Of a DNA stretch of 23,488 nt, positions 1 to 18,018 are shown piece after piece (positions within the stretch are counted from its first letter, which is position 1; each line of letters opens with the position of its first letter). The stretch is from IMG/VR virus record IMGVR_UViG_3300002503_000015, positions 18,867 through 42,354 of that record. One strand, written 5' to 3'. The stretch comes from a virus. The position numbers were made by a program, and so were the translations under genes. The notes beneath the pieces were generated by a model that saw only the letters and a program-made list of their open reading frames with translations, did no database searches and had not been told where the DNA came from.

Positions 1-1143
1 TTTGGCAACACTAATCCAATTAAATTGGGGTTGCTGAGTATATTCAAACATCTTGGCAGCGTGTAAATAACGTAATTCTTTGTCGTAATAATATGTATTC
101 AAAGCCTCGACAACATCATCTTCATGTATAATACCGCCCTCAGTATTAATCTTCAGGTTGGATAGGTATTGTCTGGCTGGCAAAAGCAGTCCACGGTCTT
201 TGAATATTTCCGCTGTAGCAGCAAAGCCGGGCACTATTTGGGGCACTCCACAAGCTGCTTGCTCAAAATTGACCAAACCCCAACCTTCACCAGAACTTGT
301 ATTCAATCCAATATCTGCCGTGTTATAAATGATATTCAATAATTCTTCTGATACCGTACTTCCAGGGGTAAGATTGGGATCAGTCAATATCAATTTATTT
401 GCACTTTCGATGCCATTGAGTTTACATTCTCGCATCATTAAAGGTATGATACTCCAACCTGCATCTACCAAGCCCATATGTAGATACAATCTGGCGTCTG
501 GCTTGTTTTTCGCAAATTTGCAAAATGCTTTGATGGTAGTATCTATACGCTTCCTAGGTTGGTTTCGATTAGCATTGAAGACGATGAAATCTTCATCCTT
601 TAAACCATTCAGGCTTTGGCGAGCTTCACTTTTATTGACTGGAAAATATATATTGGTATCGACACCGTGTGGTACGATTGAAACTTTGCGCCGAAACCCA
701 GCTTCCCGCAAAACTTGCTTGGCAAATTCTGTATAAACTAATACTTTATCCACTCGATAAAGTGGGTCCATCCATTCTGGATCATAACCATAAGCGTCTA
801 CTGGAAAGTAAATAGCCGTTTTGAAGTTTTCCAATTTAGCTTCTTTCAAGATATATAAGTAATCCAGTATTACCCATATATCGTTGAATAGAACTACAAC
901 TTCAGGCTTTATAGCCTTAACGATAGTTTCCAACCGTTTGTAACCTAGTTGATCTCCACCCAACACAGCCGGGTAAATCTTGTATGGGTAGTTGTGTGGA
1001 TCACCGTGATAATTAACACCCAATACGTGGATGTCATACATACCTGTGTTGAACAATCCATTCAATACGTTGTGTGAAACGCGGCTGAACCCGGTTTGTG
1101 TTACTGCGTCGCCACACCATAGCAGACGAACGTTACTTTTCAT
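1..1143 (-). CDS. Glycosyltransferase family 4 (GT-B), 3' end cut by the window
   Basis: The frame starts at ATG 1143 (MKSNVRLLWCGDAVTQTGF) and stays open for 381 codons to base 1, so the C-terminus lies outside. The C-terminal Rossmann half carries the GT4 signature: a TSSGEGWGLVNFE stretch with the E-x7-E pair that binds the donor sugar nucleotide, followed by QAACGVPQIV. The N-terminal half has GFSRVSHNVL, as in many GT4 acceptor domains. It is expected to be a cytosolic retaining enzyme moving a sugar from an NDP-sugar to a glycan or protein; neither donor nor acceptor can be read from sequence. It overlaps the GT2 gene upstream by 11 bp, so it is the last visible cistron of the glycan block, which may continue beyond the edge. 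Confidence 0.88.
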   Translation of the reverse strand, partial: MKSNVRLLWCGDAVTQTGFSRVSHNVLNGLFNTGMYDIHVLGVNYHGDPHNYPYKIYPAVLGGDQLGYKRLETIVKAIKPEVVVLFNDIWVILDYLYILKEAKLENFKTAIYFPVDAYGYDPEWMDPLYRVDKVLVYTEFAKQVLREAGFRRKVSIVPHGVDTNIYFPVNKSEARQSLNGLKDEDFIVFNANRNQPRKRIDTTIKAFCKFAKNKPDARLYLHMGLVDAGWSIIPLMMRECKLNGIESANKLILTDPNLTPGSTVSEELLNIIYNTADIGLNTSSGEGWGLVNFEQAACGVPQIVPGFAATAEIFKDRGLLLPARQYLSNLKINTEGGIIHEDDVVEALNTYYYDKELRYLHAAKMFEYTQQPQFNWISVAK

Positions 1144-1849
1144 TGTATGATTTTGCCTTTTCCCTTTCTTCGTCGCTGCCGGGGTAAAATCCCCACTTCT
1201 CGTAGAAATACTTTCTATTGGCATTGAATTGATTATGAAGTGGTGGAATTCCAGCCTCTTTTACTGTACGCGAACCGTAATGTGCAAACCAAGCCCACAG
1301 ATCACACGAGGCATCTATACCTTCCCCACGCATGCGATGGTGGTAATCGTTATCCTCGAAGTAAGCTATCTTGAAACCTTCATCGAATAAACCTACTCGT
1401 GTTATGGTGGGAACAGTCAACCCAAAACAACTGAAATTCATAGCTCGACTATATCTAGGTATTGGCTTGGTGCAATACATCAAGGTACTGGGGTTGTTAC
1501 CCACGTTGGTTCCACTGACAGCATCCTTACCCTCTACGAATAAAGTTTCTAACATTCTGTCGAAAGCTTCTTCGTGCATAACCAAATCATTATTCAAAAT
1601 GAAGATAGCTTCACAATCATCGTGGGATAATCCCCAATAAATAATTTGATTCCAAGATTTAGCCACGCCGAGATTTTCTTGATTGAAAATATAATCGTAA
1701 CCTGACTTTTCGATCCACTCCTTAGTTTCATCCCCTGAGCCATTGTCTATTACCAACAACTTCCAAGGGTGGTTCATTTCAATACTTTCCACCGTACCAA
1801 CTAAGTACTTTTTCAAGTTGATGGTTGGTACACCAATATAGACTGTCAT
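1133..1849 (-). CDS. Glycosyltransferase family 2 (GT-A)
   Basis: Short GT2 enzyme of 238 aa. From the chosen start, residues 2-9 form the first beta strand (TVYIGVPT), 35-38 are DNGS after the second strand, and 84-88 are ILNND, the acidic metal and UDP-sugar site in the position of the DxD motif, as in rhamnosyltransferase-like GT2 enzymes. Later it has VGLFDEGF followed by YFEDND, typical of the acceptor half with its catalytic acid. An earlier in-frame ATG at 1891 exists, but ATG 1849 is preferred: it has AAGGAG 7 nt upstream and begins 4 bp after the preceding stop. The 14-residue extension would overlap the upstream gene. It likely works with the neighbouring GT genes on one glycan. Confidence 0.88.
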   Translation of the reverse strand: MTVYIGVPTINLKKYLVGTVESIEMNHPWKLLVIDNGSGDETKEWIEKSGYDYIFNQENLGVAKSWNQIIYWGLSHDDCEAIFILNNDLVMHEEAFDRMLETLFVEGKDAVSGTNVGNNPSTLMYCTKPIPRYSRAMNFSCFGLTVPTITRVGLFDEGFKIAYFEDNDYHHRMRGEGIDASCDLWAWFAHYGSRTVKEAGIPPLHNQFNANRKYFYEKWGFYPGSDEEREKAKSYNEK

Positions 1850-1853
1850 TCCT

Positions 1854-3074
1854 TTACTCCTTAAAAAATATCCATGTGGGCCACTGTTCATTCGTTGCGT
1901 AGAGTGTATGTTTCTTGTCTTTCAGAAAATCGAACACTGCGCTCCGCACACCGAATTCACTGCCACAAATATTTTCCCCATCCAAAAAATCGTGTCCTGC
2001 CACCAAACCACCACTACGTACCTTTGGATACCAAGTTTGTAAGTCTTCTGTAGTGCTGGTATATGAATGGTTGGCATCTATATACACAAAGTCTAAATCA
2101 CCAATTATATTGGCTGCATCCTTAGAAAAAGCTTTTATAACATTGTAACGACCAACGAAGGGGGCTAATCGTTCCAAAGTTTCTGTATAATTAGCATTGT
2201 GTGCCTCATCTGAAACGTTAGAAATATCCTTGTAATTAGGAACATACTTCCAAGCATCAATTATGTGTAGTTTCTCCAACCAAGTATTATGCAATAAATA
2301 TTCGGCGTATTCGCCTTTTTGCGTGCCAATTTCTGCCCCAACTTTATAACCACGTTGACTTATTAATCTGTGTAAATCATTACGTGTGATAATCTCGCTT
2401 GGTGCAATAACCCAATTAACTCGCTTCAGAATATCGTAGCGACCTGGATTGCCAGCGAAGTGATAGATATAAGCTGTCATTGCAGCAAAATTGGAAGGAA
2501 ATTGGTAGTTCCATTCTTGTCCCAAATCGTGATAGCCACCCAATTGGCTATAGATAGCCATATTCAAAGGTATCTGATCCCACCACTGGGTATTCGTACC
2601 CAGAAACAAATTGTAGGCTATCTTATATAACTCGGTGTGGAATTCCCTATTTATCAGCACCACACCCGCATTGCAGAAGTCTCGACTGATTAAATCGACA
2701 TCTAATCTGCCTTCCACCTCTTTGAGCGATAATACCTGTTGGATATCTCTATATGCTATTTGCACATTTACGTTGTATGCGGGTGGAAAGTGTGATTGTT
2801 GATTCTTGACTGCGTATAGAAATCTGGGATCACACAGCTTAAATGGGTTGGGGGTATCACTCCTCACGACTATATCTGAATCCAGAACCAAAATTCTATC
2901 GTGATCACACAAGTCGAAAGCCAACAACTTCACGGCTGAATGATGGTGTTTGGTTGGATGCTGCTTGATTTCTATAAAATCACATTCCCACCTTCGTGCA
3001 GCATCCTTCATGCTCTGTCTGGTATTTTCTGACATCACGTCGTTGGTGTTGATGACTAAGATAGTTTCAGACAT
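1854..3074 (-). CDS. GT8-type glycosyltransferase fused to a class I SAM methyltransferase
   Basis: Two-domain protein of 406 aa. Residues 1-225 look like a GT8 (GT-A) domain: VLDSDIV with D65-x-D67 for metal and donor binding, FCNAGVVLIN at about 133-142, and YHFAGNPGRYD at about 204-214, where GT8 enzymes carry HFxGxxKPW. Residues 235-406 look like a Methyltransf_24-type Rossmann domain: VGAEIGTQKGEYAEYL (245-260) is the SAM loop, DFVYIDANHSY (328-338) the acidic strand, and GGLVAGHDF (355-363) the usual end of that core. The start has GAGGT 6 nt upstream and overlaps the GT9-like gene by 19 bp. The fusion suggests that transfer of a sugar and methylation of it or its acceptor are coupled. 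Target unknown. Confidence 0.85.
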   Translation of the reverse strand: MSETILVINTNDVMSENTRQSMKDAARRWECDFIEIKQHPTKHHHSAVKLLAFDLCDHDRILVLDSDIVVRSDTPNPFKLCDPRFLYAVKNQQSHFPPAYNVNVQIAYRDIQQVLSLKEVEGRLDVDLISRDFCNAGVVLINREFHTELYKIAYNLFLGTNTQWWDQIPLNMAIYSQLGGYHDLGQEWNYQFPSNFAAMTAYIYHFAGNPGRYDILKRVNWVIAPSEIITRNDLHRLISQRGYKVGAEIGTQKGEYAEYLLHNTWLEKLHIIDAWKYVPNYKDISNVSDEAHNANYTETLERLAPFVGRYNVIKAFSKDAANIIGDLDFVYIDANHSYTSTTEDLQTWYPKVRSGGLVAGHDFLDGENICGSEFGVRSAVFDFLKDKKHTLYATNEQWPTWIFFKE

Positions 3075-3820
3075 TCCAGCACCTCTTCTACTGTCGGATT
3101 GATTGGATAGAAATTATTTTCACTTCTAACTACGTGGCGCATGTCCCAATGAATTGAGTCATGTGGAGATACTTTGGGGAAATCGAACCCATTAGCTAAC
3201 ACTAACATGGCTGACATAATGCCAACGAAGCCAACTGACTTAGCCAACCAAGTTGTAGTCTCTAGCATATCTAAACCGGTCTTGTCGATTGCATTACCCT
3301 CGACTGCATCACCCCAACCGCCAACTTGAATTACCTTGATGGGTGATTTTTCTATAATTTCTTGGAACAATCCAGCATAAGTTGTCTTGCCTCTGGGGGC
3401 TACACAAATGTATGGCTCGTCTAGAGTTTCAAAATCTGGATATTCATATTTAACTTCTATACCATTGTGTGCTTGAATTCCAGCGAGCATGGCGATATAG
3501 TTTGGTAGTGGCCTGTCAGGAACCTGTCTATAGCCGAGTTGCCAAACTGTGTCATACAAGTTAATATCTACTGGAATATACCAAGGCTGAACCCCTAAGT
3601 CCATACGTTCCACCGCATAATTGTCTGGCATGAAGAAATTGTCGATGAAGGACTGGTGCTCGAACAACCTCTTTAGTGGTTCACAATATTTGCTGGTGTA
3701 AAAATCACAGGTGGTTTTTCTATGATTACAAATCCAACGCATGGCTGGCATCACGTACAGAGAATCACCGATTTTACCTGGGTGAGTGAAGGCCAACCTG
3801 CCCTTTTCAATAAGTCCCAT
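3056..3820 (-). CDS. GT9-like (heptosyltransferase-type) glycosyltransferase
   Basis: 254 aa. Residues 13-25 (HPGKIGDSLYVMP) match the N-terminal loop of GT9/ADP-heptose:LPS heptosyltransferases, which begin with a G-x-x-GD-x-x-x-x-x-P pattern. Later segments ICVAPRGKTTYAG, KVIQVGGWGD and a C-terminal SVGFVGIMSAMLVLANG resemble the nucleotide-sugar half of this GT-B fold, where GT9 members usually have a GDSG-type turn. It is shorter than typical heptosyltransferases (about 320-350 aa), so it may be a reduced or divergent form. The start has AGGAGAGG just upstream. It shares one base with the stop of the FkbM gene (TAATG), implying translational coupling. Donor and acceptor are not predictable. 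Confidence 0.7.
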   Translation of the reverse strand: MGLIEKGRLAFTHPGKIGDSLYVMPAMRWICNHRKTTCDFYTSKYCEPLKRLFEHQSFIDNFFMPDNYAVERMDLGVQPWYIPVDINLYDTVWQLGYRQVPDRPLPNYIAMLAGIQAHNGIEVKYEYPDFETLDEPYICVAPRGKTTYAGLFQEIIEKSPIKVIQVGGWGDAVEGNAIDKTGLDMLETTTWLAKSVGFVGIMSAMLVLANGFDFPKVSPHDSIHWDMRHVVRSENNFYPINPTVEEVLECLKLS

Positions 3821-4431
3821 TAACCTCTCCTATAAATATCATTAAACATAATGCGTTCTATTTTATTGTAACCTCTGGCGGTGAGGTATTCATCTTGTTC
3901 TATATTGTGGGGTTCGAGATTTGCAGCATCGTAATAAAGGTTCTCTACCGCAATTACTTTCAATCCCCATCTATCCAAATTGATTCCACGTAGAACATCT
4001 AATTCTGAACCCTCCGTGTCTATGGCCAAGAAATCCACATGATCTACTTTGGCAACGTTCTCTATGAACCAATCCAAGGTGCGTACTTTTACTTTGATAG
4101 TGGTCAGATGTTGTGGGTGGTCGTAATAAATTAGACCCGTCCCCCCAGCCTCTCCATTTGGTCCGTGTCCAAGATTATATATATAGAAATCTACATTATC
4201 TTTGTTTTCCGTACCCATAGCATAATTATACACATTTTTGCGGCTAACAAGCATCTCTTGGCAATGTGGGTTTGGTTCTATGCAGAATACTTCCCAACCT
4301 TTTTCTTCTAATAAATAACTATTATTGAGCCAAGTTGCGTGGTAAGCTCCTACATCTATACAGATACCTTTATAATTTTTATCAAACAAGTCTAGAACGA
4401 ATTCAGCCACACCTTCGGTATTATAATCCAT
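3820..4431 (-). CDS. FkbM-family SAM-dependent methyltransferase
   Basis: 203 aa, close to the size of compact FkbM domains. GICIDVGAYHATW (22-34) is the SAM-binding loop, FCIEPNP (49-55) the acidic second strand, and DFLAIDTEGSELDVLRG (133-149) the family's most characteristic motif. ITVENL-like AVENLYY (161-167) follows. FkbM enzymes are mostly O-methyltransferases acting on sugar hydroxyls of polysaccharides or natural products, which fits the surrounding glycosyltransferases. The gene overlaps the sulfotransferase-like gene by 11 bp and is coupled to the GT9-like gene through TAATG. A membrane anchor or signal peptide is not visible, so it should act in the cytosol on a lipid-linked, nucleotide-linked or protein-linked sugar. 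Confidence 0.88.
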   Translation of the reverse strand: MDYNTEGVAEFVLDLFDKNYKGICIDVGAYHATWLNNSYLLEEKGWEVFCIEPNPHCQEMLVSRKNVYNYAMGTENKDNVDFYIYNLGHGPNGEAGGTGLIYYDHPQHLTTIKVKVRTLDWFIENVAKVDHVDFLAIDTEGSELDVLRGINLDRWGLKVIAVENLYYDAANLEPHNIEQDEYLTARGYNKIERIMFNDIYRRG

Positions 4432-5119
4432 TGAATAATTTCAACCCAAACTCGTACAATTCTAAATCGTATTCATTAGCCAATTCTAATTTTTGCAAAG
4501 TGGAAGCATCTAAATTATTTGCTGGGTGCCTAGGTTTTTCATTGTTCACTTGAATTAAGGGCAATCCAACAAAGTCACTCAAACATTGTAATGATTTATC
4601 AAACTGTTCTTTAATTCCCACGAAAGGAAACGTAGTTAATCTGGCTTTGGCTTTCGTTAAATCTTCTTTGGTGGGTCGTATTTTGGTTGAGAAATCTACT
4701 GCGCATTTAATTTCTGCAATATCGAAGTCTGAAGCCAACATTCTGGTTTGTTGGTTAGCCATAACTGTAAACCAAAATGGATTGTCCAACAATTCAGATA
4801 AAGTATGATTGTCCAAATCTTCTTTGTTTGGGCCGGCCCACAACCCTTTGGTCATATAATAATTAGATACACATCTATTTATTGGCTCACCCAGTATGGT
4901 AATGAATGTAGGATTGCCTTTCAATAATCTAATCAAGGGGTAATAAGAATGTCCTCCGATTAGATCGTAAGTATCCAAATCTATGGCCTCTACAAAATAT
5001 TCCCAATTTCTGTAAGGGCAAACTGTCTTACCTACTTCTCGATAAGCATTAGCCAAAGCCACACCAAGTGAAGTACCTGCCGTTCTCGGCAAGTGAATAA
5101 ATACCAATTGATTATCCAT
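4421..5119 (-). CDS. Sulfotransferase-like protein (PAPS-type P-loop)
   Basis: 232 aa. The N-terminus has FIHLPRTAGTSL (7-18), matching the 5'-phosphosulfate loop of carbohydrate sulfotransferases (consensus around H-x-P-K/R-T-A/G-G-T-S). The segment ILGEPINRCVSNYYM (75-89) matches the 3'-phosphate-binding region, with R82 and S85 in the positions of the conserved Arg and Ser and the usual aromatic pair behind. This pattern is typical of Sulfotransfer_2 and Golgi-type enzymes rather than cytosolic arylsulfotransferases. It would move sulfate from PAPS to a sugar hydroxyl. No PAPS synthesis gene is in the window, so the donor would come from the host. The gene overlaps the upstream small gene by 8 bp and the FkbM gene by 11 bp. 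Some P-loop proteins of this shape have lost catalysis, so activity is inferred. Confidence 0.75.
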   Translation of the reverse strand: MDNQLVFIHLPRTAGTSLGVALANAYREVGKTVCPYRNWEYFVEAIDLDTYDLIGGHSYYPLIRLLKGNPTFITILGEPINRCVSNYYMTKGLWAGPNKEDLDNHTLSELLDNPFWFTVMANQQTRMLASDFDIAEIKCAVDFSTKIRPTKEDLTKAKARLTTFPFVGIKEQFDKSLQCLSDFVGLPLIQVNNEKPRHPANNLDASTLQKLELANEYDLELYEFGLKLFNGL

Positions 5120-5339
5120 ACGTTTTTTCGGTAACAGTTATATCTTCATTACCAAGCAATTCGTCGATGACCCGGATCAACTGATTGCGCCTAGCATTTA
5201 ACTTTAAAGCTTTGCGAGCTGCCTCAGCTACAACGTGGTCATCCTCGTTGGCATAATCTTCCTGAACCATGAAAAGTTTTACATTGTTCGTGATGAGTTC
5301 ATCCAAAAGCATTCCAAAACTCTTCATCATTATACCCAT
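5112..5339 (-). CDS. DUF4254-like small protein of the glycan cluster
   Basis: 75 aa, highly charged and helical. The pattern DELITNNVKLFMVQEDYAN followed by VVAEAARKALKLNARRNQLIRVIDELLG resembles the DUF4254 family, whose members have an N-x-x-LW-x-x-E-D helix and then ID-x-x-N-x-x-R-N/D-x-x-I-x-x-ID. DUF4254 genes are often found among glycosyltransferases. I assign this by eye, so it needs a profile search. ATG 5339 is preferred because AAGG lies 6 nt upstream; ATG 5330, which would make a TAATG junction with the methyltransferase stop, is a near-equal choice. The position between a methyltransferase and a sulfotransferase suggests an accessory or scaffolding role in glycan building. Confidence 0.72.
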   Translation of the reverse strand: MGIMMKSFGMLLDELITNNVKLFMVQEDYANEDDHVVAEAARKALKLNARRNQLIRVIDELLGNEDITVTEKTYG

Positions 5340-6535
5340 ATCTCACCTTCTTGAGTAATTAATCTCGGCTTGGGTAACATCACCAAGACTTTTCCGCCAT
5401 TATCAATGTAACTCTGCAATTTTGGCAGTATGTTGTCAGCAAATTGCCAGATCAACAACACGATATAATCTGGATTAGCATCTAAAATTTCTTTTTCTGG
5501 TACGATGGGAATATTAGTTCCGACCATCTTTAGCCCAAACTTATCAGGATGTATCTCGCCAATAGCTTTTATCTTGGAATTATCCAACCCGAAATATTGT
5601 AGGACCGTGTTGGCTTTGGTACTGGCCCCCAAACCGCAGATTGACTTATTTTTATTTGATTCGAAGAATTGATTAACTTTTTGCTTTAATTCTTGAACTC
5701 GCTTGGCAAATTCTTGCAATGAGTCATCACGCAATTCCAAAAATTCTTTTATTAGCATGCACACGAGGTGTGGTTGTATGCCCCTCTCACCGGTGTGACA
5801 GGCATAAACCCGCAGGCTACCACCGTTGACTTTGTTGTACTCAGCATCGAAAATTTCCAACCCAACTTGATCGAAGAGATCGAGTAGATTATCTAAAGAA
5901 TAATATTCTAAATGTTCGGCGCAAATATTATCGAAGCCATTAGTTTTTAGCATAGATAAGAGGTCCATGATTTGCACCACAAATATACCGCCAGCAGCCA
6001 ATGAATTTTTAACATCTTGTAGAAATTTCAATGGGTCTGGTAAATCGTAGAACATGGCGATAGCAGTAATAACTTTGGCTGGTTTGCAATCTCTTGGCAA
6101 TACTTCATACGAAAAATAATCATTTATGAAAGCATTACAATGTTTCTCTGCCTCTATCCGCAAATTGTAAGCTGGGTCAATTCCAACTTTATAGATATAA
6201 TCGGGGTAGAAATTTAATAATGATCCATCATTGGTACCGATGTCCACAACTATATGCCCCGGTTCAAGCGTAACATATTTTTGAACACTATCTACAATAT
6301 CACTAAGAGCTGTCACCATTGAGCCATTCAAAGCACTGCGGTACCAATAGTACCGATACATTTTATCCAAATCTGCGGTGTCCATCAGTTGGGCTAATCT
6401 ACATTTTGAACACAACCCTAACCGTAATGGAGCCTTTTCAAGCTGCTCATCACCACATATAAAAGTAGATGGGTAGATTTCTCCCAAATCTAAAACCTGC
6501 TTTAATTCTCCCTTACAAACCCTGCAACCTTCCAT
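5330..6535 (-). CDS. Zinc-containing sugar C-methyltransferase (TylC3/TcaB9-like)
   Basis: 401 aa, the full length of NDP-sugar C-methyltransferases, with the three expected parts. Residues 1-60 hold a zinc site with C4/C7 and C42/C45 (CRVC and CSKC), as in the Methyltransf_13 domain. Residues 90-210 hold the SAM domain: VVDIGTNDGSLL (96-107), GIDPAYN and an EHLEYYS box (207-213) carrying the family's Glu-His pair. NGGSLRVYA (237-245) is typical of the family. Residues 295-401 match the C-terminal Methyltransf_14 domain, with CGLGASTKANTVLQYFGL. Known homologues methylate C-3 of NDP-4-keto-deoxysugars to make branched sugars. AAGGAG sits 6 nt before the ATG. It is the first gene of the glycan block and follows a virion gene after only 10 bp. 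Confidence 0.88.
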   Translation of the reverse strand: MEGCRVCKGELKQVLDLGEIYPSTFICGDEQLEKAPLRLGLCSKCRLAQLMDTADLDKMYRYYWYRSALNGSMVTALSDIVDSVQKYVTLEPGHIVVDIGTNDGSLLNFYPDYIYKVGIDPAYNLRIEAEKHCNAFINDYFSYEVLPRDCKPAKVITAIAMFYDLPDPLKFLQDVKNSLAAGGIFVVQIMDLLSMLKTNGFDNICAEHLEYYSLDNLLDLFDQVGLEIFDAEYNKVNGGSLRVYACHTGERGIQPHLVCMLIKEFLELRDDSLQEFAKRVQELKQKVNQFFESNKNKSICGLGASTKANTVLQYFGLDNSKIKAIGEIHPDKFGLKMVGTNIPIVPEKEILDANPDYIVLLIWQFADNILPKLQSYIDNGGKVLVMLPKPRLITQEGEIWV

Positions 6536-6545
6536 TCAATTCTCC

Positions 6546-7076
6546 TTAGAAATTTTCACTCTCATACCGATTCGGTGGAAAACGAAAACCTAGAAGCTCC
6601 CCCTTTTTCGAGCGAGCCAATCTCTGTCTACGTTCTGGTACCAGCTTATTTAATTCTTCCCAGTCTCTAATCAAGCTGGCTTCCTGCATCTTGGCACCAG
6701 TCATATTACTGAATGAAACTTCGTCATCCCGCCATGATACAGCATTACTGCCAACTGTATAGATTAAACCGGATTTAAGAGCGATTGCAGCAGCCAATAA
6801 GATAGGTCGTTCATCCCCGTACATAATTATTGGCGGTGAGGCGTGTGTGAATACATCGGTGCTGCTTCTGGCCACATCCCAGTTCTCGGTGCTTGCATTA
6901 TAAGTTGGCACATAACGACTGTTCCAACGCGGCATAAGCATCTTTAGCCCAGCCAGAAGTACCAATTTTAATGTATCATTTGAATACGTAAAGGTAGAAC
7001 CGGTATCTCCTAAGTGTATTCTTAAGTAATCTGTAAGGTAATCGAGGTCACTCGTGTATGTAAGTTCAACAGCCAT
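6546..7076 (-). CDS. Putative head-tail connector / virion protein, function unassigned
   Basis: 176 aa. The N-terminal half (residues about 7-50) reads as alpha-helical with LDYLTDYLRIHLGD and NDTLKLVLLAGLKMLMPRW, a pattern seen in phage head-tail adaptor proteins, and the middle has RPILLAAAIALKSG. The C-terminus (SLIRDWEELNKLVPERRQRLARSKKGELLGF) is helical and basic. No enzyme motif is visible. Position supports a virion role: it is the last cistron after capsid, fibre and Ig-like genes and precedes the glycan genes by 10 bp. A strong GGGGGA lies 8 nt before the ATG. The connector label is an inference from helix pattern and location. Confidence 0.55.
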   Translation of the reverse strand: MAVELTYTSDLDYLTDYLRIHLGDTGSTFTYSNDTLKLVLLAGLKMLMPRWNSRYVPTYNASTENWDVARSSTDVFTHASPPIIMYGDERPILLAAAIALKSGLIYTVGSNAVSWRDDEVSFSNMTGAKMQEASLIRDWEELNKLVPERRQRLARSKKGELLGFRFPPNRYESENF

Positions 7077-7088
7077 AAAATATTCCCC

Positions 7089-7364
7089 CTAGAATTGGGT
7101 TTTGAGCACCGTAAAAGTAGCTTCTATGGCAGCATTTGGTGTCGTAGTTTCCAGCCGGTAATGCCATTGACCTTCACCGCTCGCGACAAGATCAACATAA
7201 TAACTACCAACCGCACTTTTAACCAATTCTGCATTTACCCCATAAGTATAAGCCGTCTTATCCCCGTTTGATTTCTTATATCGGAATATTACGGTAGTTG
7301 GATCGACGGCTGGGCTCAAAGTAAATGAGCAACGAACAGCATTTCCTGTAAAATATTGGTTCAT
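7089..7364 (-). CDS. Small beta-rich (Ig-like) virion protein
   Basis: 91 aa. The order of segments is that of a short beta sandwich found as single-domain proteins among phage structural genes: VRCSFTL, DPTTVIFRYKKSNG, TYGVNAELVKSAVGSYYVDL, then GQWHYRLETT and EATFTVLKTQF. The DP-x-x-V-x-F-x-Y, G-x-Y-x-V and G-x-W-x-Y-R landmarks are the recognisable ones. It probably serves as a capsid, neck or fibre accessory. No signal peptide or membrane segment. It begins 2 bp after the previous stop, so it depends on the upstream message. The exact attachment site cannot be told. Confidence 0.6.
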   Translation of the reverse strand: MNQYFTGNAVRCSFTLSPAVDPTTVIFRYKKSNGDKTAYTYGVNAELVKSAVGSYYVDLVASGEGQWHYRLETTTPNAAIEATFTVLKTQF

Positions 7365-7366
7365 GT

Positions 7367-7648
7367 TTAATTAACGTCCTCGGCAGTTATCGTAGTTGTT
7401 ACTACGTTAGAATCTTGCACAGTTGTTATAAATGCATCTCCTGCGGTTGGTGTAGTAACTCTGGCATCTGAAGCAATCAAGGTAGTAATTAAAGCATCAC
7501 TTGAACTAAAACCATATATGGCTACGTCTGCTCCGGCGATCTTCATTGGAACCAAAATTATAACTTGTGAGATTATAATTTTGCCGCCGGATTCCAGTAA
7601 TAGATGACTACCAGATTCCAACAATAAAAAGTAGTTTATAGTCGTCAT
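7367..7648 (-). CDS. Short repeat-containing virion-type protein
   Basis: 93 aa with internal repetition. Residues 8-27 hold a tandem turn motif: LLLESG at 8-13 and again at 16-21, then GGKIII. Residues 48-90 hold an imperfect repeat of about 10 residues ending in TT (SDALITT, SDARVTT, GDAFITT, SNVVTT). Such periodic Ser/Asp/Thr/Val repeats fit a beta-helical or collagen-like spacer in a fibre or capsid appendage. No catalytic motif is seen. The start shares ATGA with the stop of the preceding gene, indicating coupled translation. Function is not recognised beyond a likely structural role. Confidence 0.55.
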   Translation of the reverse strand: MTTINYFLLLESGSHLLLESGGKIIISQVIILVPMKIAGADVAIYGFSSSDALITTLIASDARVTTPTAGDAFITTVQDSNVVTTTITAEDVN

Positions 7649-7842
7649 GGGTCTGCTATAATCAACATCTGTGGCACATTGCCACGTGCCGTCACAAGCA
7701 CTGAGATGTCCAGCCGCACGCGGAATTCAGCCTGCCACTCGGCAACGAAAGCATCGTACTTGATCTTGGCCGCATTGACCCGTGCCTGCTGCTCTTCTTG
7801 CAGCAAGCGGCGGGCCTGGGCGGGGGTGATTACGGTATCCAT
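7645..7842 (-). CDS. Small helical protein of unknown function
   Basis: 65 aa. The N-terminal two thirds is one probable amphipathic helix, from TPAQARRLLQEEQQARVNAA to DAFVAEWQAEF, ending in a short beta stretch ISVLVTARGNVPQMLIIA. It belongs to the GC-rich patch (line 7801-7860 is 38/60 GC), unlike the AT-rich genes on either side. It overlaps the upstream gene by 13 bp and shares ATGA with the downstream gene. It may be an assembly or fibre-associated factor, but I recognise no family. Confidence 0.5.
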   Translation of the reverse strand: MDTVITPAQARRLLQEEQQARVNAAKIKYDAFVAEWQAEFRVRLDISVLVTARGNVPQMLIIADP

Positions 7843-8099
7843 GCTGTATTCGCCTTTCCCCGCAAGCGGGCCAGCAGGTTTTGCAGACCCGTGATCTCGG
7901 CGTTGGTCAGATGCGGGATTAAATTCCCTTGCCTGATCTCGATGCTGCCATCCGATAATTTCAGTTGCACGCGGTAGGTGGCTGCTTGCGGTGTACCCTC
8001 CGCATTGGTCGGGGAGGGATCAAACAGGGTGATCTCCATATCCTCCACACTCACAGGTGTGGGCGCAACAGGTCGGGCCGGAAGGGGTGAATCTGCCAT
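7830..8099 (-). CDS. Small protein of the fibre region, unknown function
   Basis: 89 aa from ATG 8099. A proline-rich N-terminus (SPLPARPVAPTPV) leads into a beta segment (DMEITLFDPSP, TYRVQLKLSDGSIEIRQG) and a C-terminal helix (TNAEITGLQNLLARLRGKA). ATG 8099 has AGGAG 9 nt upstream; the ATG three codons earlier sits only 1 nt from that motif and is unlikely to be used. DNA is GC-rich like the next gene. It lies between the fibre candidate and a small helical protein, so a fibre-linked structural or chaperone role is plausible but unproven. Confidence 0.5.
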   Translation of the reverse strand: MADSPLPARPVAPTPVSVEDMEITLFDPSPTNAEGTPQAATYRVQLKLSDGSIEIRQGNLIPHLTNAEITGLQNLLARLRGKANTAWIP

Positions 8100-8111
8100 A
8101 AATTTCATCTC

Positions 8112-9368
8112 CTATGCTGTAGGTGCACTATAAAAAGGCACATAATAAAAACCGTCCGTAATGGGATTAGTTGCTTGGTCATCCTGCACATAAATTTTCA
8201 ACCACCCTACAATCGAACCTGGTGTTGTCATATCAGCCGCATCAACTAAAGATTGAGAAGCATTAGTTGTAGAAGTGCCGATGAAATGGATGAATTCCTC
8301 GGATACGTCGGCCTGATCCAGAAGCAAAACCGGCTTAGCCGCAGTAGTGGAAGTCTGATCAATGTGCAAGCTGGCTGCCGGAGCCTGCGCGAACATGCCA
8401 ATCGCCCCAGATGTTATTCGCATCTGTTCAGCCGCGCTAACGAAAAATCGAGTAGTGGCAGCCACTTCTGACCCAAGTACCAGGCCGCGCGAAGGACCTG
8501 AGCCACCCTTATCTGTAATGATACGAAATTCATTAGCAACCCAATACATGTGTACACGAGAAAAATTGGTTGCTTCATCGGCTGTATTGTATAGAGCAAT
8601 ACCCTCCGATGCCGCCGGAAAACTCAACGCGGTTTGAGGAGTTGGCGTGCCTGCTCCAATCCTCCCATTGGTCGTATCCACCACCAGCACGTTGTCTTTG
8701 ATGCCGTCCTGCTCGACCAACAACGCCACAGCCGAGTTGACGTTGATCTTCTGCACCGCCGTGAACACGTTGGCCAGCGCCAGACCGGCTTTCTCGGTGT
8801 CCAACTCATCGATAGCCGCCTGCACTGTCACAGCGGCAATGTTGCCAGCCGCCACGTTGGTAATCAGGCTGGCGGTGTAATCTCCGGCTGTAGCCACGAC
8901 TGCGCCGGTACGGGTGAAGACGCTGGTCACACCGCCACTCACTACAGCCCAGGCTGCGTCTTGGCGAGCGTATTGGCTGCCGTTAGAAGGAGCATCGTCG
9001 ATGATAGCCATACTGCCCAGGCCAAGCGAGGTTCTGGCCGTTGCTCCATTTTCAGCAACCCAAGTGCTGCCGTTACCCACGATAAAGTTTCCATCTGTAA
9101 TGGCTAAAGCGGCGATAGCAGCTAGTTCTGCATCGTAAGCTTGTACATCTACCCCGACTTCTAATTCCAAATTGACGCGAGCCGTAGGAACGTCATCTAA
9201 ATCACTTAAGTTATTGGAACCAAGCAAGTAGCGAGCATCCAACGTGGACAATACAAGCTTTTTACTTTGGTCATTTTCGCTCGGCTCAGATATATCTACT
9301 ATATAAAGTAGATCACCGGAAGCTGGTGTGGTTAGTTCCGTTAATGCACTTAGTTTTGCATCTGCCAT
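8112..9368 (-). CDS. Tail fibre / appendage protein candidate
   Basis: 418 aa, low-complexity and beta-rich with no enzyme motif. The N-terminus (DAKLSALTELTTPASGDLLY, followed by a SKK segment) is the short anchor often seen at the start of phage appendage proteins. The middle has fibre-like units: LSDLDDVPTARVNL, ITDGNFIVGNGSTWV, and TRTGAVVATAGDYTASLI, which is common in tail fibres. NGRIGAGTPTPQTALSF and PAASLHIDQT resemble the sequence often found before trimeric fibre tips. The C-terminus GWLKIYVQDD...YVPFYSAPTA is probably the distal part. No clear Shine-Dalgarno precedes ATG 9368, 2 bp after the previous stop, so coupling is likely. Coding DNA at about 8620-8960 is near 60% GC while flanks are near 35-45%, suggesting an imported segment. 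Confidence 0.65.
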   Translation of the reverse strand: MADAKLSALTELTTPASGDLLYIVDISEPSENDQSKKLVLSTLDARYLLGSNNLSDLDDVPTARVNLELEVGVDVQAYDAELAAIAALAITDGNFIVGNGSTWVAENGATARTSLGLGSMAIIDDAPSNGSQYARQDAAWAVVSGGVTSVFTRTGAVVATAGDYTASLITNVAAGNIAAVTVQAAIDELDTEKAGLALANVFTAVQKINVNSAVALLVEQDGIKDNVLVVDTTNGRIGAGTPTPQTALSFPAASEGIALYNTADEATNFSRVHMYWVANEFRIITDKGGSGPSRGLVLGSEVAATTRFFVSAAEQMRITSGAIGMFAQAPAASLHIDQTSTTAAKPVLLLDQADVSEEFIHFIGTSTTNASQSLVDAADMTTPGSIVGWLKIYVQDDQATNPITDGFYYVPFYSAPTA

Positions 9369-10438: not shown

Positions 10439-11362
10439 TTAGGTCAAACCACCAACGACCACAATTCCAATCTGGCGGTCTATAATCATTCCGAACTGAA
10501 GATAGAACTCAGTATTGTAAACTGGTGGCGTTGGTTCCCAGTTGGTCCACTGCTTGTGCTTGACATCGCCGTAGGTAATGAATTCGCCTACGTTCTCGCC
10601 AATGACCAGAACTTTATTTTCAGGAAGCTGAGCGGTATAATCCACTTCGTTGTCCCAAATTTGATCTAGCCCTATGATGCGGGCACCGAAATAATTTCCA
10701 AGAAAGCCGGTACGGCTAATCTCTTCGATAGCTGAAGGAATACCCACACCCCAAGAGGTTGGAGAGGCATCGTAAGGTACATAATTACCAAACTTGGTAA
10801 TAGGCGTCATAGCTTTGCGGGTACCAACAACGGCTCGCACCGCACCAACTCGGTAGTTAACTTCATTAATGGCAGTCTCAAGAGCCGTGGCGGTCAAAGC
10901 ACCACCAACATTGATGAAGTTGCTAGGTGTATTGGTGGCACTCCACAACGTAGCCAGCTTGGTAAAGACTTGGGTCATGAAGTAGTCCTTGATCTTGGCC
11001 TTCATCTCGGCTTCGATCTCGCCAATGGTACCAAGCTCACCGGATTCAAGTTCCCACTCATTTGCATGGACACGAACATCTATGCCGGAAAGATGGTAAT
11101 TAGCCCGGTCGACCACACTTACTTCACTAGCCATATGCACGGCTCCTGGCACTAAGGTCCTCACGGTTATGCCCTTACGGACCTTCTTTACTAATTGAGT
11201 GCCTGGGGCCAGACTACGAGTATTCAACAACATTGATACAAAGTCGGTGGTAATATGGTTTGGTTGAAGGTATTCCACGATAAGCGTGGCGAAAGCTTCG
11301 CGGTCGGTCTTAGCCAAAGACGCAAGAGCTTCACGGTACTGAGTTTCTTTCTGCTTATCCAT
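10439..11362 (-). CDS. Major capsid protein (HK97-like fold candidate)
   Basis: 307 aa, placed where the major capsid protein is expected: portal, protease/scaffold, decoration, capsid. Residues 60-110 (VRKGITVRTLVPGAVHMASE and following) would form the extended E-loop and N-arm region; residues 110-150 (EIEAEMKAKIKDYFMTQVFT) the long spine helix; residues 180-205 (NEVNYRVGAVRAVVGTRKAM) the P-domain; and VLVIGENVGEFITYGDV plus FGMIIDRQIGIVVVGGL the C-terminal beta hinge, a common ending for such proteins. There is no long helical delta domain at the N-terminus, agreeing with a separate scaffold. AGGGG lies 8 nt before the ATG and a strong terminator follows the stop. The fold is inferred from pattern and position. 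Confidence 0.8.
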   Translation of the reverse strand: MDKQKETQYREALASLAKTDREAFATLIVEYLQPNHITTDFVSMLLNTRSLAPGTQLVKKVRKGITVRTLVPGAVHMASEVSVVDRANYHLSGIDVRVHANEWELESGELGTIGEIEAEMKAKIKDYFMTQVFTKLATLWSATNTPSNFINVGGALTATALETAINEVNYRVGAVRAVVGTRKAMTPITKFGNYVPYDASPTSWGVGIPSAIEEISRTGFLGNYFGARIIGLDQIWDNEVDYTAQLPENKVLVIGENVGEFITYGDVKHKQWTNWEPTPPVYNTEFYLQFGMIIDRQIGIVVVGGLT

Positions 11363-13118: not shown

Positions 13119-14618
13119 TTACACCTCCACTGGTTCGCCCGGTACACTGGGTTTGGGTGAGAAAGGTAGAGCAGGAACCTCTGGAACGTCGAATTCTTTC
13201 ATCAATTCGCGCTCAGTAGATTTCTTTTCTAATTCTTCCTCGAAGTTGTAACCAGCTATACCAGCCAAACTCGTTAAACTTAGAGCATTGTTTTGATACA
13301 ATGTCGTTGCGATCTCTGTTAACTTACCTAAATCGTATAGACGCAATTCCTCGAAACTAACTTTTATCCTGTTTTCAAAGCTGTTTCGAGTTTTTATTTG
13401 ATCTATGAGTTCCTCAACCCATAAGAGGATATCTTCTCTAAATCGTTTGATTGTCTCCGCAGGCGAAAACATTGCGAACTCAGCTTGTGAGGTAGCCGAG
13501 CGTAAAGTCTCACCACTAACGAGGATTCTAGGCATACCCAAAGCGTTGAATATATCTTCGTTAACAGCTTGATATTTCTCTTGGTTAAGCATAGCCTCGG
13601 TGTCGGGGTAAATCCATTCGATGTTCAGCGTGTGGTTAGCAAAAAGTTGAAACACCCGGTCGATGTTTTTAGGTTGACTTCGCCACAACATTTGAGTTTT
13701 CAAATCGTCTAATTGGTCTTCATCATCCTCTGTGAGAGGAAAATCATCATTACCAAGTTTAATTAATTGAATGGCCCCGATCACCCTAGAAGCGATAGCA
13801 TAATCCATTTTCTTGAGGTTGCGCTTAAAAGCTAGAGATTCCAACGCCGAGAGTAGATACGGAGTTGGGTTGGGATCATAGGTTTTGGGTCTGCGTCTTA
13901 TTACGAATGCTTTCTCTAGTAAAAGAGTGCTTTGTCCTTTTTTAATTGCATTTACAAATTCAGGAAATTCTTCTGTTAAACGCGACATAGTTTCTGTATC
14001 TGTAGAACCATCCGGTCGCTTACCACCCTCCAAGACGAACTTCCTGATGTTCTCTGGAATCATCATGTAAACTTCAACGTCTGTTGAAAACGGTACCCAC
14101 TGTAAAGTCAAAAGGAATGGATCAATTATCCAACATTTTTCCGGCAATTCATAACGCCGAACAGTGTCCAGATTTAATTCATCCGGTGTGAATTGCCGCC
14201 AAGCAGCTTGGGGTACCACTAAACCTGACAATAAATATTCTAATGCGGCTTCCTTGAGGTACTTGAGAAATAATTTTTCCGCAGTTTGATAGACTGTAAA
14301 TTCTTCGTCGGTGCAATTGTTTCGGTCAAAAACCAACTTGTTAATACCAACGTCGATAATCTTATTTATAGCTGTGCTGGCAATGGGGTCTACTTCGTAA
14401 TAGTAACGTACCCAGGCTATTCTCTCTTTATAGTCAGTCGGCAATTTCATTTTGTCCGGTTCGTTAGTGCCACCAGATAAGAGAATAGGGCTTATATCAC
14501 CATACAACTGTATCGAGCCATAAGGATTAGTTACCCAAGCCGCGAAGGCATTTTTCACTCGTTGAGGTTGTGTTTCTTTGGGAAGTCTTTCCTCAATTTC
14601 GATTTCTATATTTTCCAT
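13119..14618 (-). CDS. Portal protein
   Basis: 499 aa from ATG 14618, typical for portals (about 450-550). IAWVRYYYEVDPIASTAINK (near residue 70) resembles the N-terminal helical segment of SPP1/phage T4-type portals. The wing region has ELPEKCWIIDPFLLTLQWVP. The stem and crown have QYQ-like EKYQAVNEDIFNALGMPRIL, an LVSGETLRSATSQAEFAMFS motif and a helical end (FREDILLWVEELIDQIKTRN). It forms the dodecameric ring through which DNA is packaged. ATG 14618 overlaps the stop of the zinc-ribbon gene by one base (TAATG); an upstream in-frame ATG at 14642 lies inside that gene and is less likely. It directly follows terminase genes, as expected. Confidence 0.88.
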   Translation of the reverse strand: MENIEIEIEERLPKETQPQRVKNAFAAWVTNPYGSIQLYGDISPILLSGGTNEPDKMKLPTDYKERIAWVRYYYEVDPIASTAINKIIDVGINKLVFDRNNCTDEEFTVYQTAEKLFLKYLKEAALEYLLSGLVVPQAAWRQFTPDELNLDTVRRYELPEKCWIIDPFLLTLQWVPFSTDVEVYMMIPENIRKFVLEGGKRPDGSTDTETMSRLTEEFPEFVNAIKKGQSTLLLEKAFVIRRRPKTYDPNPTPYLLSALESLAFKRNLKKMDYAIASRVIGAIQLIKLGNDDFPLTEDDEDQLDDLKTQMLWRSQPKNIDRVFQLFANHTLNIEWIYPDTEAMLNQEKYQAVNEDIFNALGMPRILVSGETLRSATSQAEFAMFSPAETIKRFREDILLWVEELIDQIKTRNSFENRIKVSFEELRLYDLGKLTEIATTLYQNNALSLTSLAGIAGYNFEEELEKKSTERELMKEFDVPEVPALPFSPKPSVPGEPVEV

Positions 14619-14851
14619 TAAAAATCTTCTCGATTGTCCCAAATTAAATAAGGCCAGACAGTGCTAGCTTTTACCATGTTAGTTCCAGAGTTTCCGTATA
14701 TACCTTTAATGGTATTGCAATTTGAGCATTTCTCCACAAACGGTGCCCATATGGAGCCACACACTGGACATTGCCAGCCAACTGGGGTTGATGTGCCTGA
14801 AACCACATCACAAGCATAAGTTGAATCTTTTCTTCCATTTATAATACACAT
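14618..14851 (-). CDS. Small zinc-ribbon protein between terminase and portal
   Basis: 77 aa with CPVC (residues 28-31) and CSNC (42-45) in WQCPVCGSIWAPFVEKCSNC, a classic zinc ribbon. A further CIING at the start and ACDVV at 13-17 are probably not ligands. The stop of the terminase is directly followed by this ATG, with AGGTGG 9 nt upstream. Possible roles are a packaging accessory or nucleic-acid-binding factor. No experimental homologue comes to mind. Similar short zinc ribbons recur in this window. Confidence 0.7.
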   Translation of the reverse strand: MCIINGRKDSTYACDVVSGTSTPVGWQCPVCGSIWAPFVEKCSNCNTIKGIYGNSGTNMVKASTVWPYLIWDNREDF

Positions 14852-17943: not shown

Positions 17944-17945
17944 AG

Positions 17946-18018
17946 TAGGGATAGGAAGGTACGATCTTCCGCCATCTCACTCCCAAAGCGAGCGTGCTGC
18001 CAGTTACACCATATCCCT
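17946..18018 (-). tRNA. tRNA-Pro (anticodon UGG)
   Basis: 73 nt, cloverleaf complete: acceptor AGGGATA/TATCCCT, D-arm GTGT-AACTGGCA-GCAC, anticodon arm CTCGC-TTTGGGA-GTGAG (anticodon TGG), variable loop ATGGC, T-arm GGAAG-ATCGTAC-CTTCC, discriminator A. The T-loop starts ATC instead of TTC. No encoded CCA. Its first bases overlap the stop codon of the upstream gene. The wobble U can read CCA, a frequent Pro codon in these genes. Confidence 0.85.

What the first reader, a model, noticed from the sequence alone, without database searches (positions are those of the whole stretch)
1..6535. Eight-gene glycan building and modification block fused to the virion operon
Directly behind the head and fibre genes on the same strand lie a sugar C-methyltransferase, a DUF4254-like gene, a sulfotransferase-like gene, an FkbM methyltransferase, GT9-like, GT8-methyltransferase, GT2 and GT4 genes, each overlapping or touching the next. 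The families are established; their combination in one coupled phage message implies a dedicated product, a methylated and possibly sulfated oligosaccharide. Inference: it decorates phage particles (capsid or fibre) or rebuilds host surface sugar. No nucleotide-sugar synthesis genes are visible, so host donors are implied, and the block may continue past base 1.
Basis: partly seen in the sequence, partly recalled or inferred. Interest (0 to 1): 0.85.

Follow-up and report, generated by a model that had tools for sequence, protein, structure and literature searches.

The report
Phage virion-operon sugar-modification gene block
In a family of uncultured tailed phages, one sugar-attaching enzyme gene accompanies the genes for the virus neck, and in this phage seven more mostly sugar-modifying genes sit right beside it, which suggests that the phage coats its own particle with a custom glycan.

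Summary
The block is real: eight touching genes on the minus strand, nested inside the virion operon rather than attached to its end. GT4, the last, stops 33 bp beyond the window and shares a TGATG junction with a stopper-fold neck gene; tail genes follow. The eight are of two kinds. GT4 is core: in loci found with the stopper protein alone, GT4 lies upstream in 49 of 50 (the exception shows 128 bp). It co-diverges with the stopper (Mantel r 0.74), keeps the EX7E motif, and its nearest solved relative by sequence is a chlorovirus glycosyltransferase, B736L. The other seven (sugar C-methyltransferase, DUF4254-like, sulfotransferase-like, FkbM, an unassigned protein, GT8-like/methyltransferase fusion, GT2) look like an exchangeable cassette: relatives carry equivalents upstream of the terminase, between portal and protease, or here, some with GDP-sugar or NeuB genes. 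Most likely it makes a C-/O-methylated, possibly sulfated glycan for a virion protein, as reported for mycobacteriophage Corndog. No acceptor, product or activity was shown. The GT9 call is unsupported; DUF4254 and GT8 fall below cut-offs. New variant of a known kind.

The parts
6546..7076 (-). ADAP: 176-aa head-completion (adaptor-like) protein, upstream border of the slot; role inferred from position between capsid and stopper genes
   Evidence: homologs in the same place in relatives; no PHROG hit
5330..6535 (-). CMT: sugar 3-C-methyltransferase (TcaB9/MtmC-like, Zn-binding + SAM + C-terminal domains)
   Evidence: Pfam PF08421, PF13489, PF08484 above cut-off; PDB 4rv9 E 1e-40, residues 4-393 of 401; E207-H208 invariant in all 5 sequences of A7
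5112..5339 (-). 75-aa DUF4254-like protein (below the Pfam cut-off), recurrent companion of CMT
   Evidence: within 6 genes of CMT in 46 of 80 CMT-seeded loci, directly after it in 30
4421..5119 (-). ST: sulfotransferase-like protein (tentative)
   Evidence: no Pfam hit itself; relative L083 PF03567 6e-10; PDB 5t03 E 0.0047; predicted model unusable, pLDDT 43
3820..4431 (-). FkbM-family methyltransferase
   Evidence: PF05050 6.5e-19, TIGR01444 3e-16
3056..3820 (-).
   Evidence: no hits; no match to a PF01075 protein by hhalign; homologs near CMT in L269, L270, L300
1854..3074 (-). GT8-like half (sub-threshold) fused to a Methyltransf_24 methyltransferase
   Evidence: PF13578 2e-13, PF01501 17.0 bits < 24.3
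1133..1849 (-). GT2 glycosyltransferase (start placed at the conserved Met; ORF opens at 1891)
   Evidence: PF00535 1.5e-13; 55% identical to the L045 GT2
1..1143 (-). GT4 glycosyltransferase, the core gene; continues 33 bp past the window to G000:18834 (ORF opens at 1224)
   Evidence: PF00534 2e-8; A3 alignment with EX7E; B736L 3oy2 E 2e-23 single sequence, 1e-45 profile; shares TGATG with the stopper start
10439..11362 (-). Putative major capsid protein (by position), seed for relatives
   Evidence: PHROG families of unknown function only
13119..14642 (-). Portal protein, seed for relatives
   Evidence: phrog_2739 portal 1.6e-20

Best explanation
The block makes and attaches a glycan to the phage's own particle during late infection. 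Steps. (1) The host supplies an NDP-4-keto-6-deoxyhexose; the C-methyltransferase adds a branch methyl at C-3 (inferred from full-length homology). (2) GT2, the GT8-like/methyltransferase fusion and possibly the unassigned 254-aa protein build a short chain; FkbM and the fused domain O-methylate it; the sulfotransferase-like protein may sulfate it with host PAPS (inferred). (3) GT4, the conserved member, most likely performs the constant step, joining the first sugar to a virion protein or closing the chain, while the seven-gene cassette sets the variable outer structure (inference from conserved versus variable gene content). Shown: gene content, coupling, position inside the virion operon, GT4-stopper linkage, intact GT4 motif, different cassettes at different sites in relatives. 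Not shown: any activity, product or acceptor.
For: Nested between adaptor and stopper genes with overlapping junctions. Stopper: predicted model pLDDT 84; 11 of the first 13 structural matches are neck or particle entries of phages, a satellite or a gene transfer agent, lambda Z 9.1, SPP1 connector Z 7.8 (Foldseek E 3e-3 at best). GT4 lies upstream of the stopper in 49 of 50 stopper-seeded loci (42 clusters at 95% identity, 41 with GT4; 43 of 49 within -100..+10 bp) and in 17 of 17 non-redundant capsid/portal-seeded contigs showing both borders. GT4-stopper distances correlate at r 0.74, 0 of 2000 permutations. Motif GEG[WF]xL...E in 49 of 50; the other has an intein inside it. Nearest solved structure by sequence is B736L of a chlorovirus, a group that glycosylates its capsid protein largely with its own enzymes, one a GT-methyltransferase protein (PMC7019647 passages). 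Corndog: an O-methyltransferase and three transferase genes between portal and protease, found in infected cells and not in virions (PMC4351075 passages); gp38 named as essential for capsid glycosylation (PMC12363180 passages). No flippase family among the block's Pfam hits and no clear membrane segment (highest 19-residue hydropathy 1.76).
Against: No acceptor, product or proteome. The GT4 family is not confined to necks: only 6 of the 80 best GT4-seeded loci show the stopper. Two searched records show neither GT4 nor stopper: G002 (L005, 23 kb, which does have the adaptor) and G013 (L079, 66.5 kb); being possible fragments they do not settle the matter, but they could be members without GT4. 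Co-divergence also follows from plain vertical descent, and GT4-portal is as high (0.74, 17 loci). B736L has no proven acceptor, and NY-2A capsid glycans lack mannose (PMC9614988 passages). A related cassette (L103) has a predicted membrane protein, DUF2061. Hydropathy maxima of GT4, the 254-aa protein and CMT (1.62-1.76) lie near the usual membrane threshold of 1.6 (recalled). Sulfation rests on weak homology.
Confidence: 0.6

Rival explanations
1. The block remodels the host cell surface (LPS, capsule, S-layer) late in infection, to stop progeny re-adsorbing to debris or to exclude other phages.
For: Same enzyme families serve cell-surface polysaccharides; GT2 has a weak GtrB-like PHROG match (E 0.007); related cassettes hold NeuB, GMD, LicD, DUF2061 and DegT genes of the kind found in surface-glycan pathways (that association is recalled).
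Against: No flippase, polymerase or lipid-linked initiating transferase among the block's Pfam hits and no clear membrane segment; GT4 accompanies a neck gene.
Confidence: 0.22
2. The glycosyltransferases modify phage DNA bases (T4/RB69-like), with methylation as a second layer.
For: Phage enzymes that glycosylate DNA exist, and T4 alpha-GT also resembles B736L by HHpred (PMC6024577, one table passage).
Against: No thymidylate-synthase-type enzyme in the 87-kb record, with controls ringing in 9 of 14 genomes; the Tet/JBP search was uninformative because no control rang; sugar C-methyl, FkbM and sulfotransferase-like genes are not known to me in DNA modification (recalled); linkage to neck genes.
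Confidence: 0.07
3. GT4 is retained mainly as an assembly factor or structural neck protein, its enzyme activity being secondary; the cassette is unrelated cargo that the operon tolerates.
For: Constant neighbour of the stopper and co-divergence with it (r 0.74, against 0.52 with the adaptor and 0.49 with the capsid protein; 0.74 with the portal on 17 loci).
Against: EX7E kept in 49 of 50, with inteins inside or just ahead of the motif in two phages; in the window and L045 the cassette directly adjoins GT4.
Confidence: 0.1

Closest known systems
Corndog/Che8/Myrna mycobacteriophage virion glycosylation loci
   Same: GT and methyltransferase genes inside the virion operon (Corndog: between portal and protease), with capsid and tail-tube glycans reported
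   Different: Here a GT4 accompanies the stopper across an environmental family, with a larger cassette including sugar C-methyl and possible sulfo steps; no glycan shown; homology to the Corndog enzymes was not tested (record not held)
Chlorovirus capsid glycosylation (PBCV-1 A064R, NY-2A B736L)
   Same: GT4 relative (3oy2 E 1e-45 to the profile); a GT-methyltransferase protein; fucose/GMD genes, as in relatives of this phage; conserved core with variable outer sugars parallels the logic proposed here
   Different: Eukaryotic virus; B736L acceptor unknown; no neck operon
Synechococcus phage S-CBS4 and Microcystis phage Mae-JY09 GT4 genes
   Same: Homologous GT4 (S-CBS4 41% over 90% of the query; Mae-JY09 32% over 56%) within the head/neck gene region, S-CBS4 with an adjacent GT and methyltransferase
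   Different: S-CBS4 has it between portal and protease; its capsid protein gave no match to the capsid profile
Gtr-type O-antigen conversion clusters
   Same: Phage-encoded glycosyltransferases
   Different: Gtr clusters use a flippase and polyprenyl-linked sugar (recalled); none among the block's Pfam hits

Membership tests
Phage virion-glycosylation loci (Corndog type) | GT and methyltransferase genes embedded in the virion operon | tested here: met
   precedent layout in PMC4351075
Phage virion-glycosylation loci (Corndog type) | Glycan on capsid or tail-tube protein | not testable with these tools
   needs mass spectrometry of particles
Phage virion-glycosylation loci (Corndog type) | Homology to Corndog gp36-38 / Che8 gp110 | not tested
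   Corndog record not held
GT4 glycosyltransferases, B736L-like | Glycos_transf_1 domain above the curated cut-off | tested here: met
   PF00534 34.4 bits against 26.4; not every family member reaches it (L102 only PF13692, 17.2 bits)
GT4 glycosyltransferases, B736L-like | EX7E motif | tested here: met
   A3 alignment; 49 of 50
GT4 glycosyltransferases, B736L-like | Donor and acceptor specificity | not testable with these tools
   B736L bound GDP-mannose best (PMC9614988 passage); not shown here
Sugar 3-C-methyltransferases (TcaB9/MtmC) | Three-domain architecture PF08421-PF13489-PF08484 | tested here: met
   4rv9 aligned over 4-393 of 401
Sugar 3-C-methyltransferases (TcaB9/MtmC) | Active-site Glu-His pair (role recalled) | tested here: met
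   E207-H208 invariant in the 5 sequences of A7
FkbM methyltransferases | PF05050 / TIGR01444 above cut-off | tested here: met
   69.1 against 22.7 bits; 60.1 against 37.7
Sulfotransferases (PF03567) | Profile match above cut-off | tested here: inconclusive
   window protein no hit; relative L083 40 against 22 bits
DUF4254 (PF14063) | Profile match above cut-off | tested here: not met
   16.5 against 27 bits; called DUF4254-like only
GT9 (PF01075) | Profile match | tested here: not met
   no hit for the window protein or four relatives; hhalign probability 0.3% to a PF01075 protein
GT8 (PF01501) | Profile match above cut-off | tested here: not met
   17.0 against 24.3 bits
Phage neck stopper (SPP1 gp16 / lambda neck type) | Stopper fold | tested here: met
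   lambda 8xow_f Z 9.1 (rmsd 5.2, 102 aligned), SPP1 7z4w_1 Z 7.8 (3.9, 100 aligned); 11 of the first 13 rows are phage, satellite or GTA entries; Foldseek E only 3e-3, so the fold match is moderate

The most novel reading that the evidence does not exclude
GT4 is an obligatory, neck-linked protein glycosyltransferase of a whole phage family, putting a constant first sugar on a head-neck or tail protein; the neighbouring cassette is a serotype-like exchangeable island that sets the outer, methylated, sulfated, phospho- or nonulosonate-type structure and moves among three docking places in the packaging/virion operon, giving phages an antigenic or adsorption polymorphism comparable to O-antigens.
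Probability: 0.3. Interest if true: 0.82.

Novelty: new variant of a known kind. Interest (0 to 1): 0.62.

Why it matters
Virion glycosylation in phages has been demonstrated, as far as the papers seen here tell, in a few mycobacteriophages. A glycosyltransferase that stays with the neck operon of a large environmental family would mean particle glycosylation is a core trait of some phage lineages, not an accessory. The exchangeable cassettes offer a natural library of unusual sugar-modifying enzymes, and cultured phages with a related GT4 (S-CBS4, Mae-JY09) make the question testable.

Tried and rejected
Nucleotide search of the block against 50,697 phage records: no match. Tblastn of GT2 at 1e-8: none. 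Capsid protein against cultured phages: one weak hit, Microcystis phage MaeS, 23.9%. Portal: two records of Bacillus phage G, 22.8%. Host: two portal scans of the genome collection; the first confirmed none of 215 pattern matches, the second gave three MAG contigs, one Bathyarchaeota and two from one TM6 bin, which may be binning errors; host left open. Sulfotransferase model: pLDDT 43, discarded. S-CBS4 capsid protein did not align with the capsid profile. DUF4254-like alignment too diverged to scan with. FkbM had no solved relative at 1e-3. The 254-aa protein's profile hit only Tako8, a designed protein (recalled), E 7e-5 over about 55 positions, no stretch passing on its own; taken as chance. 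Promoter- and terminator-like sites in 1-8200: 28 against 23.5 (sd 4.4) and 3 against 6.2 (sd 2.4) in shuffles. Tet/JBP search uninformative. Slot labels come from home-made HMMs that miss genes they do not cover (for example L056's sulfotransferase) and look only eight genes upstream of the terminase, so slot counts are lower bounds.
Full report
WHAT IS THERE. The window is bases 18,867-42,354 of a 42,354-bp virus record, G000. On its minus strand, from 6535 down past base 1, lie eight ORFs that touch or overlap. Downstream of the window GT4 stops at G000:18834, 33 bp away, and shares the bases TGATG with the start of the next gene; then follow a 74-aa protein, a 260-aa protein with a weak Neck1/tail-completion PHROG match (E 0.0016), a 154-aa protein, a 373-aa protein taken as the tail tube and a 1334-aa protein taken as tape measure. 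Apart from that PHROG match these tail names are by position. The block is thus nested in the virion operon between an adaptor-like gene (window 6546-7076) and the gene I call the stopper. The two unread bases at the window border (G000) read AG in a nearly identical 87,332-bp record, G001, whose ends overlap by 137 bp with 2 mismatches, as expected of a circularly permuted or repeat-ended genome.

FAMILIES. Above Pfam cut-offs: C-methyltransferase (three domains), FkbM, GT2, GT4, Methyltransf_24. The C-methyltransferase aligns over its length with D-mycarose 3-C-methyltransferase 4rv9 (E 1e-40) and TcaB9. Below cut-offs or indirect: GT8 half, DUF4254-like, sulfotransferase-like. The 254-aa 'GT9-like' protein is unassigned.

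STOPPER. A model from 22 family members has mean pLDDT 84. Foldseek's best PDB matches are phage necks and stoppers, though only at E 3e-3. VIA-align gives lambda Z 9.1, SPP1 connector Z 7.8, T1 stopper Z 7.8; the tool warns that Z under 8 may mean only a common arrangement. The run of neck entries (11 of the first 13 rows are phage, satellite or GTA) and the gene position carry the assignment.

GT4 BELONGS TO THE NECK OPERON. Capsid- and portal-seeded scans, made without reference to GT4, gave 29 loci and 80 loci (the best 80 of 135). Among these, 39 contigs show the adaptor, 32 after collapsing at 95% adaptor identity. All 17 of the 32 that also show the stopper have GT4 between the two. Over all 32: GT4 lies downstream of the adaptor in 26; in L071 it lies upstream (its record G010 has a second GT4 next to the stopper); in five (L005, L044, L055, L068, L100) the stretch ends with no GT4 called. 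With the looser labelling a 406-aa GT ORF in L044 also matches the GT4 profile. A scan seeded by the stopper alone found 50 loci: GT4 is upstream on the same strand in 49; the exception, L231, has 128 bp before the stopper. These are 42 clusters at 95% identity, 41 with GT4; the distance is -100 to +10 bp in 43 of 49, otherwise 200, 200, 2190, 3781, 4988 and 5000 bp. Of 16 records I chose for a whole-record search, 10 have the stopper and all 10 have GT4 upstream of it, in one (G006) about 3.8 kb away; four sister-branch records (G008, G010, G012, G014) have two GT4 genes, one of them next to the stopper. Pairwise distances of GT4 and stopper correlate at r 0.74 (50 unique stoppers, 0 of 2000 permutations as high); GT4-portal 0.74 (17 loci), GT4-260-aa protein 0.71 (43), GT4-adaptor 0.52 (43), GT4-capsid 0.49 (32), stopper-adaptor 0.43, stopper-capsid 0.39. 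This shows joint descent, not function. The GEG[WF]xL...E motif is present in 49 of 50; in L213 an intein interrupts it, and L206 has an intein just ahead of it. The profile of 26 GT4 proteins has one PDB match at 1e-8 or better, chlorovirus NY-2A B736L (E 1.1e-45); the window protein alone gives E 2.1e-23, the next match 1.6e-5.

LIMITS OF THAT CLAIM. Two of the 16 records have neither gene: G002 (L005's contig, 23 kb, adaptor present) and G013 (L079's, 66.5 kb); four more (G005, G009, G011, G015) have GT4 but no stopper found. Records may be fragments, so members without GT4 are not excluded. All scans start from short conserved peptides, so diverged members are missed.

THE SEVEN-GENE CASSETTE. 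The other genes are not fixed at this place. In the 41 stopper-seeded loci showing both borders none has another gene labelled by my HMMs between them, although Pfam finds a sulfotransferase (3e-23) and a GT in L056, the same contig as L213. L045 (capsid 60% identical) has the closest equivalent seen: C-methyltransferase 47%, DUF4254-like 41%, FkbM 48%, GT2 55%, GT4 55%, with a PF01075 GT9, another GT2 and a second FkbM. L050 has a sulfatase-like protein, FkbM and a GT4/GT2 fusion; L044 a PglD-like protein and a GT; L055 (contig end open) a Polysacc_synt_2 (PseB-like) protein, two GNATs and NeuB. In other members an equivalent cassette, often in similar order (CMT, DUF4254-like, FkbM..., GT2), lies directly upstream of the terminase (L256, L276, L280, L287); L103 there has GMD, LicD, cytidylyltransferase-like, DUF2061 and DegT genes. 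In the sister branch it lies between portal and protease: L086 has epimerase, Nudix, GMD, GNAT, DUF4254-like, FkbM, DegT and CMT genes. In 33 non-redundant portal-seeded stretches with at least 4 kb upstream of the terminase, labelled glycan genes are upstream of the terminase in 14, between portal and protease in 7, in both in none. The remaining 12 have no label at either place: the near-identical record of the window's phage, L050 and L044 (insert in the adaptor-stopper place); L020, whose contig does show such genes when read as L083; and L029, L040, L065, L072, L076, L081, L104, L107, several of which end early or hold unlabelled ORFs. I infer one exchangeable cassette with three docking places. 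Of the 80 C-methyltransferase-seeded loci kept (442 relatives), 46 have the DUF4254-like gene within six genes and 30 directly after; 25 of 80 show a structural gene of this family.

HOW IT LIKELY WORKS. Soluble-looking transferases and methyltransferases, no flippase among the Pfam hits and no clear membrane segment (highest hydropathy window 1.76, with GT4, CMT and the 254-aa protein between 1.62 and 1.76), and an operon shared with neck genes point to a cytoplasmic acceptor made late: a virion protein. The nearest tested precedent is Corndog, where four modification genes lie between portal and protease, were found in infected cells, and were not identified in virions (PMC4351075, passages); PMC12363180 and PMC12619734 (passages) report capsid and tail-tube glycans from Freeman 2023, which was not held. 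Chloroviruses offer the second parallel: own enzymes, a GT-methyltransferase protein, a conserved core with variable outer sugars (PMC7019647 passages). B736L bound GDP-mannose best, but its acceptor is unknown and NY-2A capsid glycans lack mannose (PMC9614988 passages; PMC4691112 passages). GDP-sugar genes in related cassettes fit a GDP-linked donor. That GT4 does the constant protein-linked step is inference.

LITERATURE CHECK. Ten searches of the open PMC library returned no paper whose listing describes a glycosyltransferase fixed beside a neck gene; DUF4254 occurs in one paper (listing only). Most subscription papers are not held, so this is weak evidence of absence.

VERDICT. New variant of a known kind.

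Noticed in passing
window 14852-17467: The terminase large subunit ORF (871 aa) appears by eye to hold an intein; the relative L005 has a 514-aa terminase without it.
   Followed up: no
L213:3536-6004 and L206:3782-6004: GT4 genes of two relatives carry intein-like insertions inside or just ahead of the catalytic GEG..E motif.
   Followed up: partly
window 17945-18018: A single tRNA-Pro (TGG) gene lies just upstream of the terminase.
   Followed up: no
G001 about 41,600-51,200 (L009): A cluster that by eye looks like ATP-grasp, two amidoligase-like and three glutamine-amidotransferase-like genes, possibly a peptide-modifying system.
   Followed up: no
L055:7925-11180: Polysacc_synt_2 (PseB-like), two GNATs and NeuB in the adaptor-GT4 place: a possible nonulosonic-acid pathway inside a phage virion operon.
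   Followed up: partly
L103:1-7140: GMD, ATP-grasp, cytidylyltransferase-like, DUF2061, LicD and DegT genes directly upstream of the terminase: possible phospho-substituent on the glycan.
   Followed up: partly
L114-L187 (most): Another large phage group carries the same GT4 family divergently beside a 506-aa protein (terminase-like by eye; not matched by this family's terminase HMM) and a ~360-aa unknown protein.
   Followed up: partly
window 5112-5339 and 46 of 80 CMT-seeded loci: The tiny DUF4254-like protein is a recurrent neighbour of the sugar C-methyltransferase; its function is unknown.
   Followed up: partly
L002:16174-16788 and L002:8746-9279: Homing-endonuclease-like ORFs (by eye) lie in the tail gene region.
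   Followed up: no
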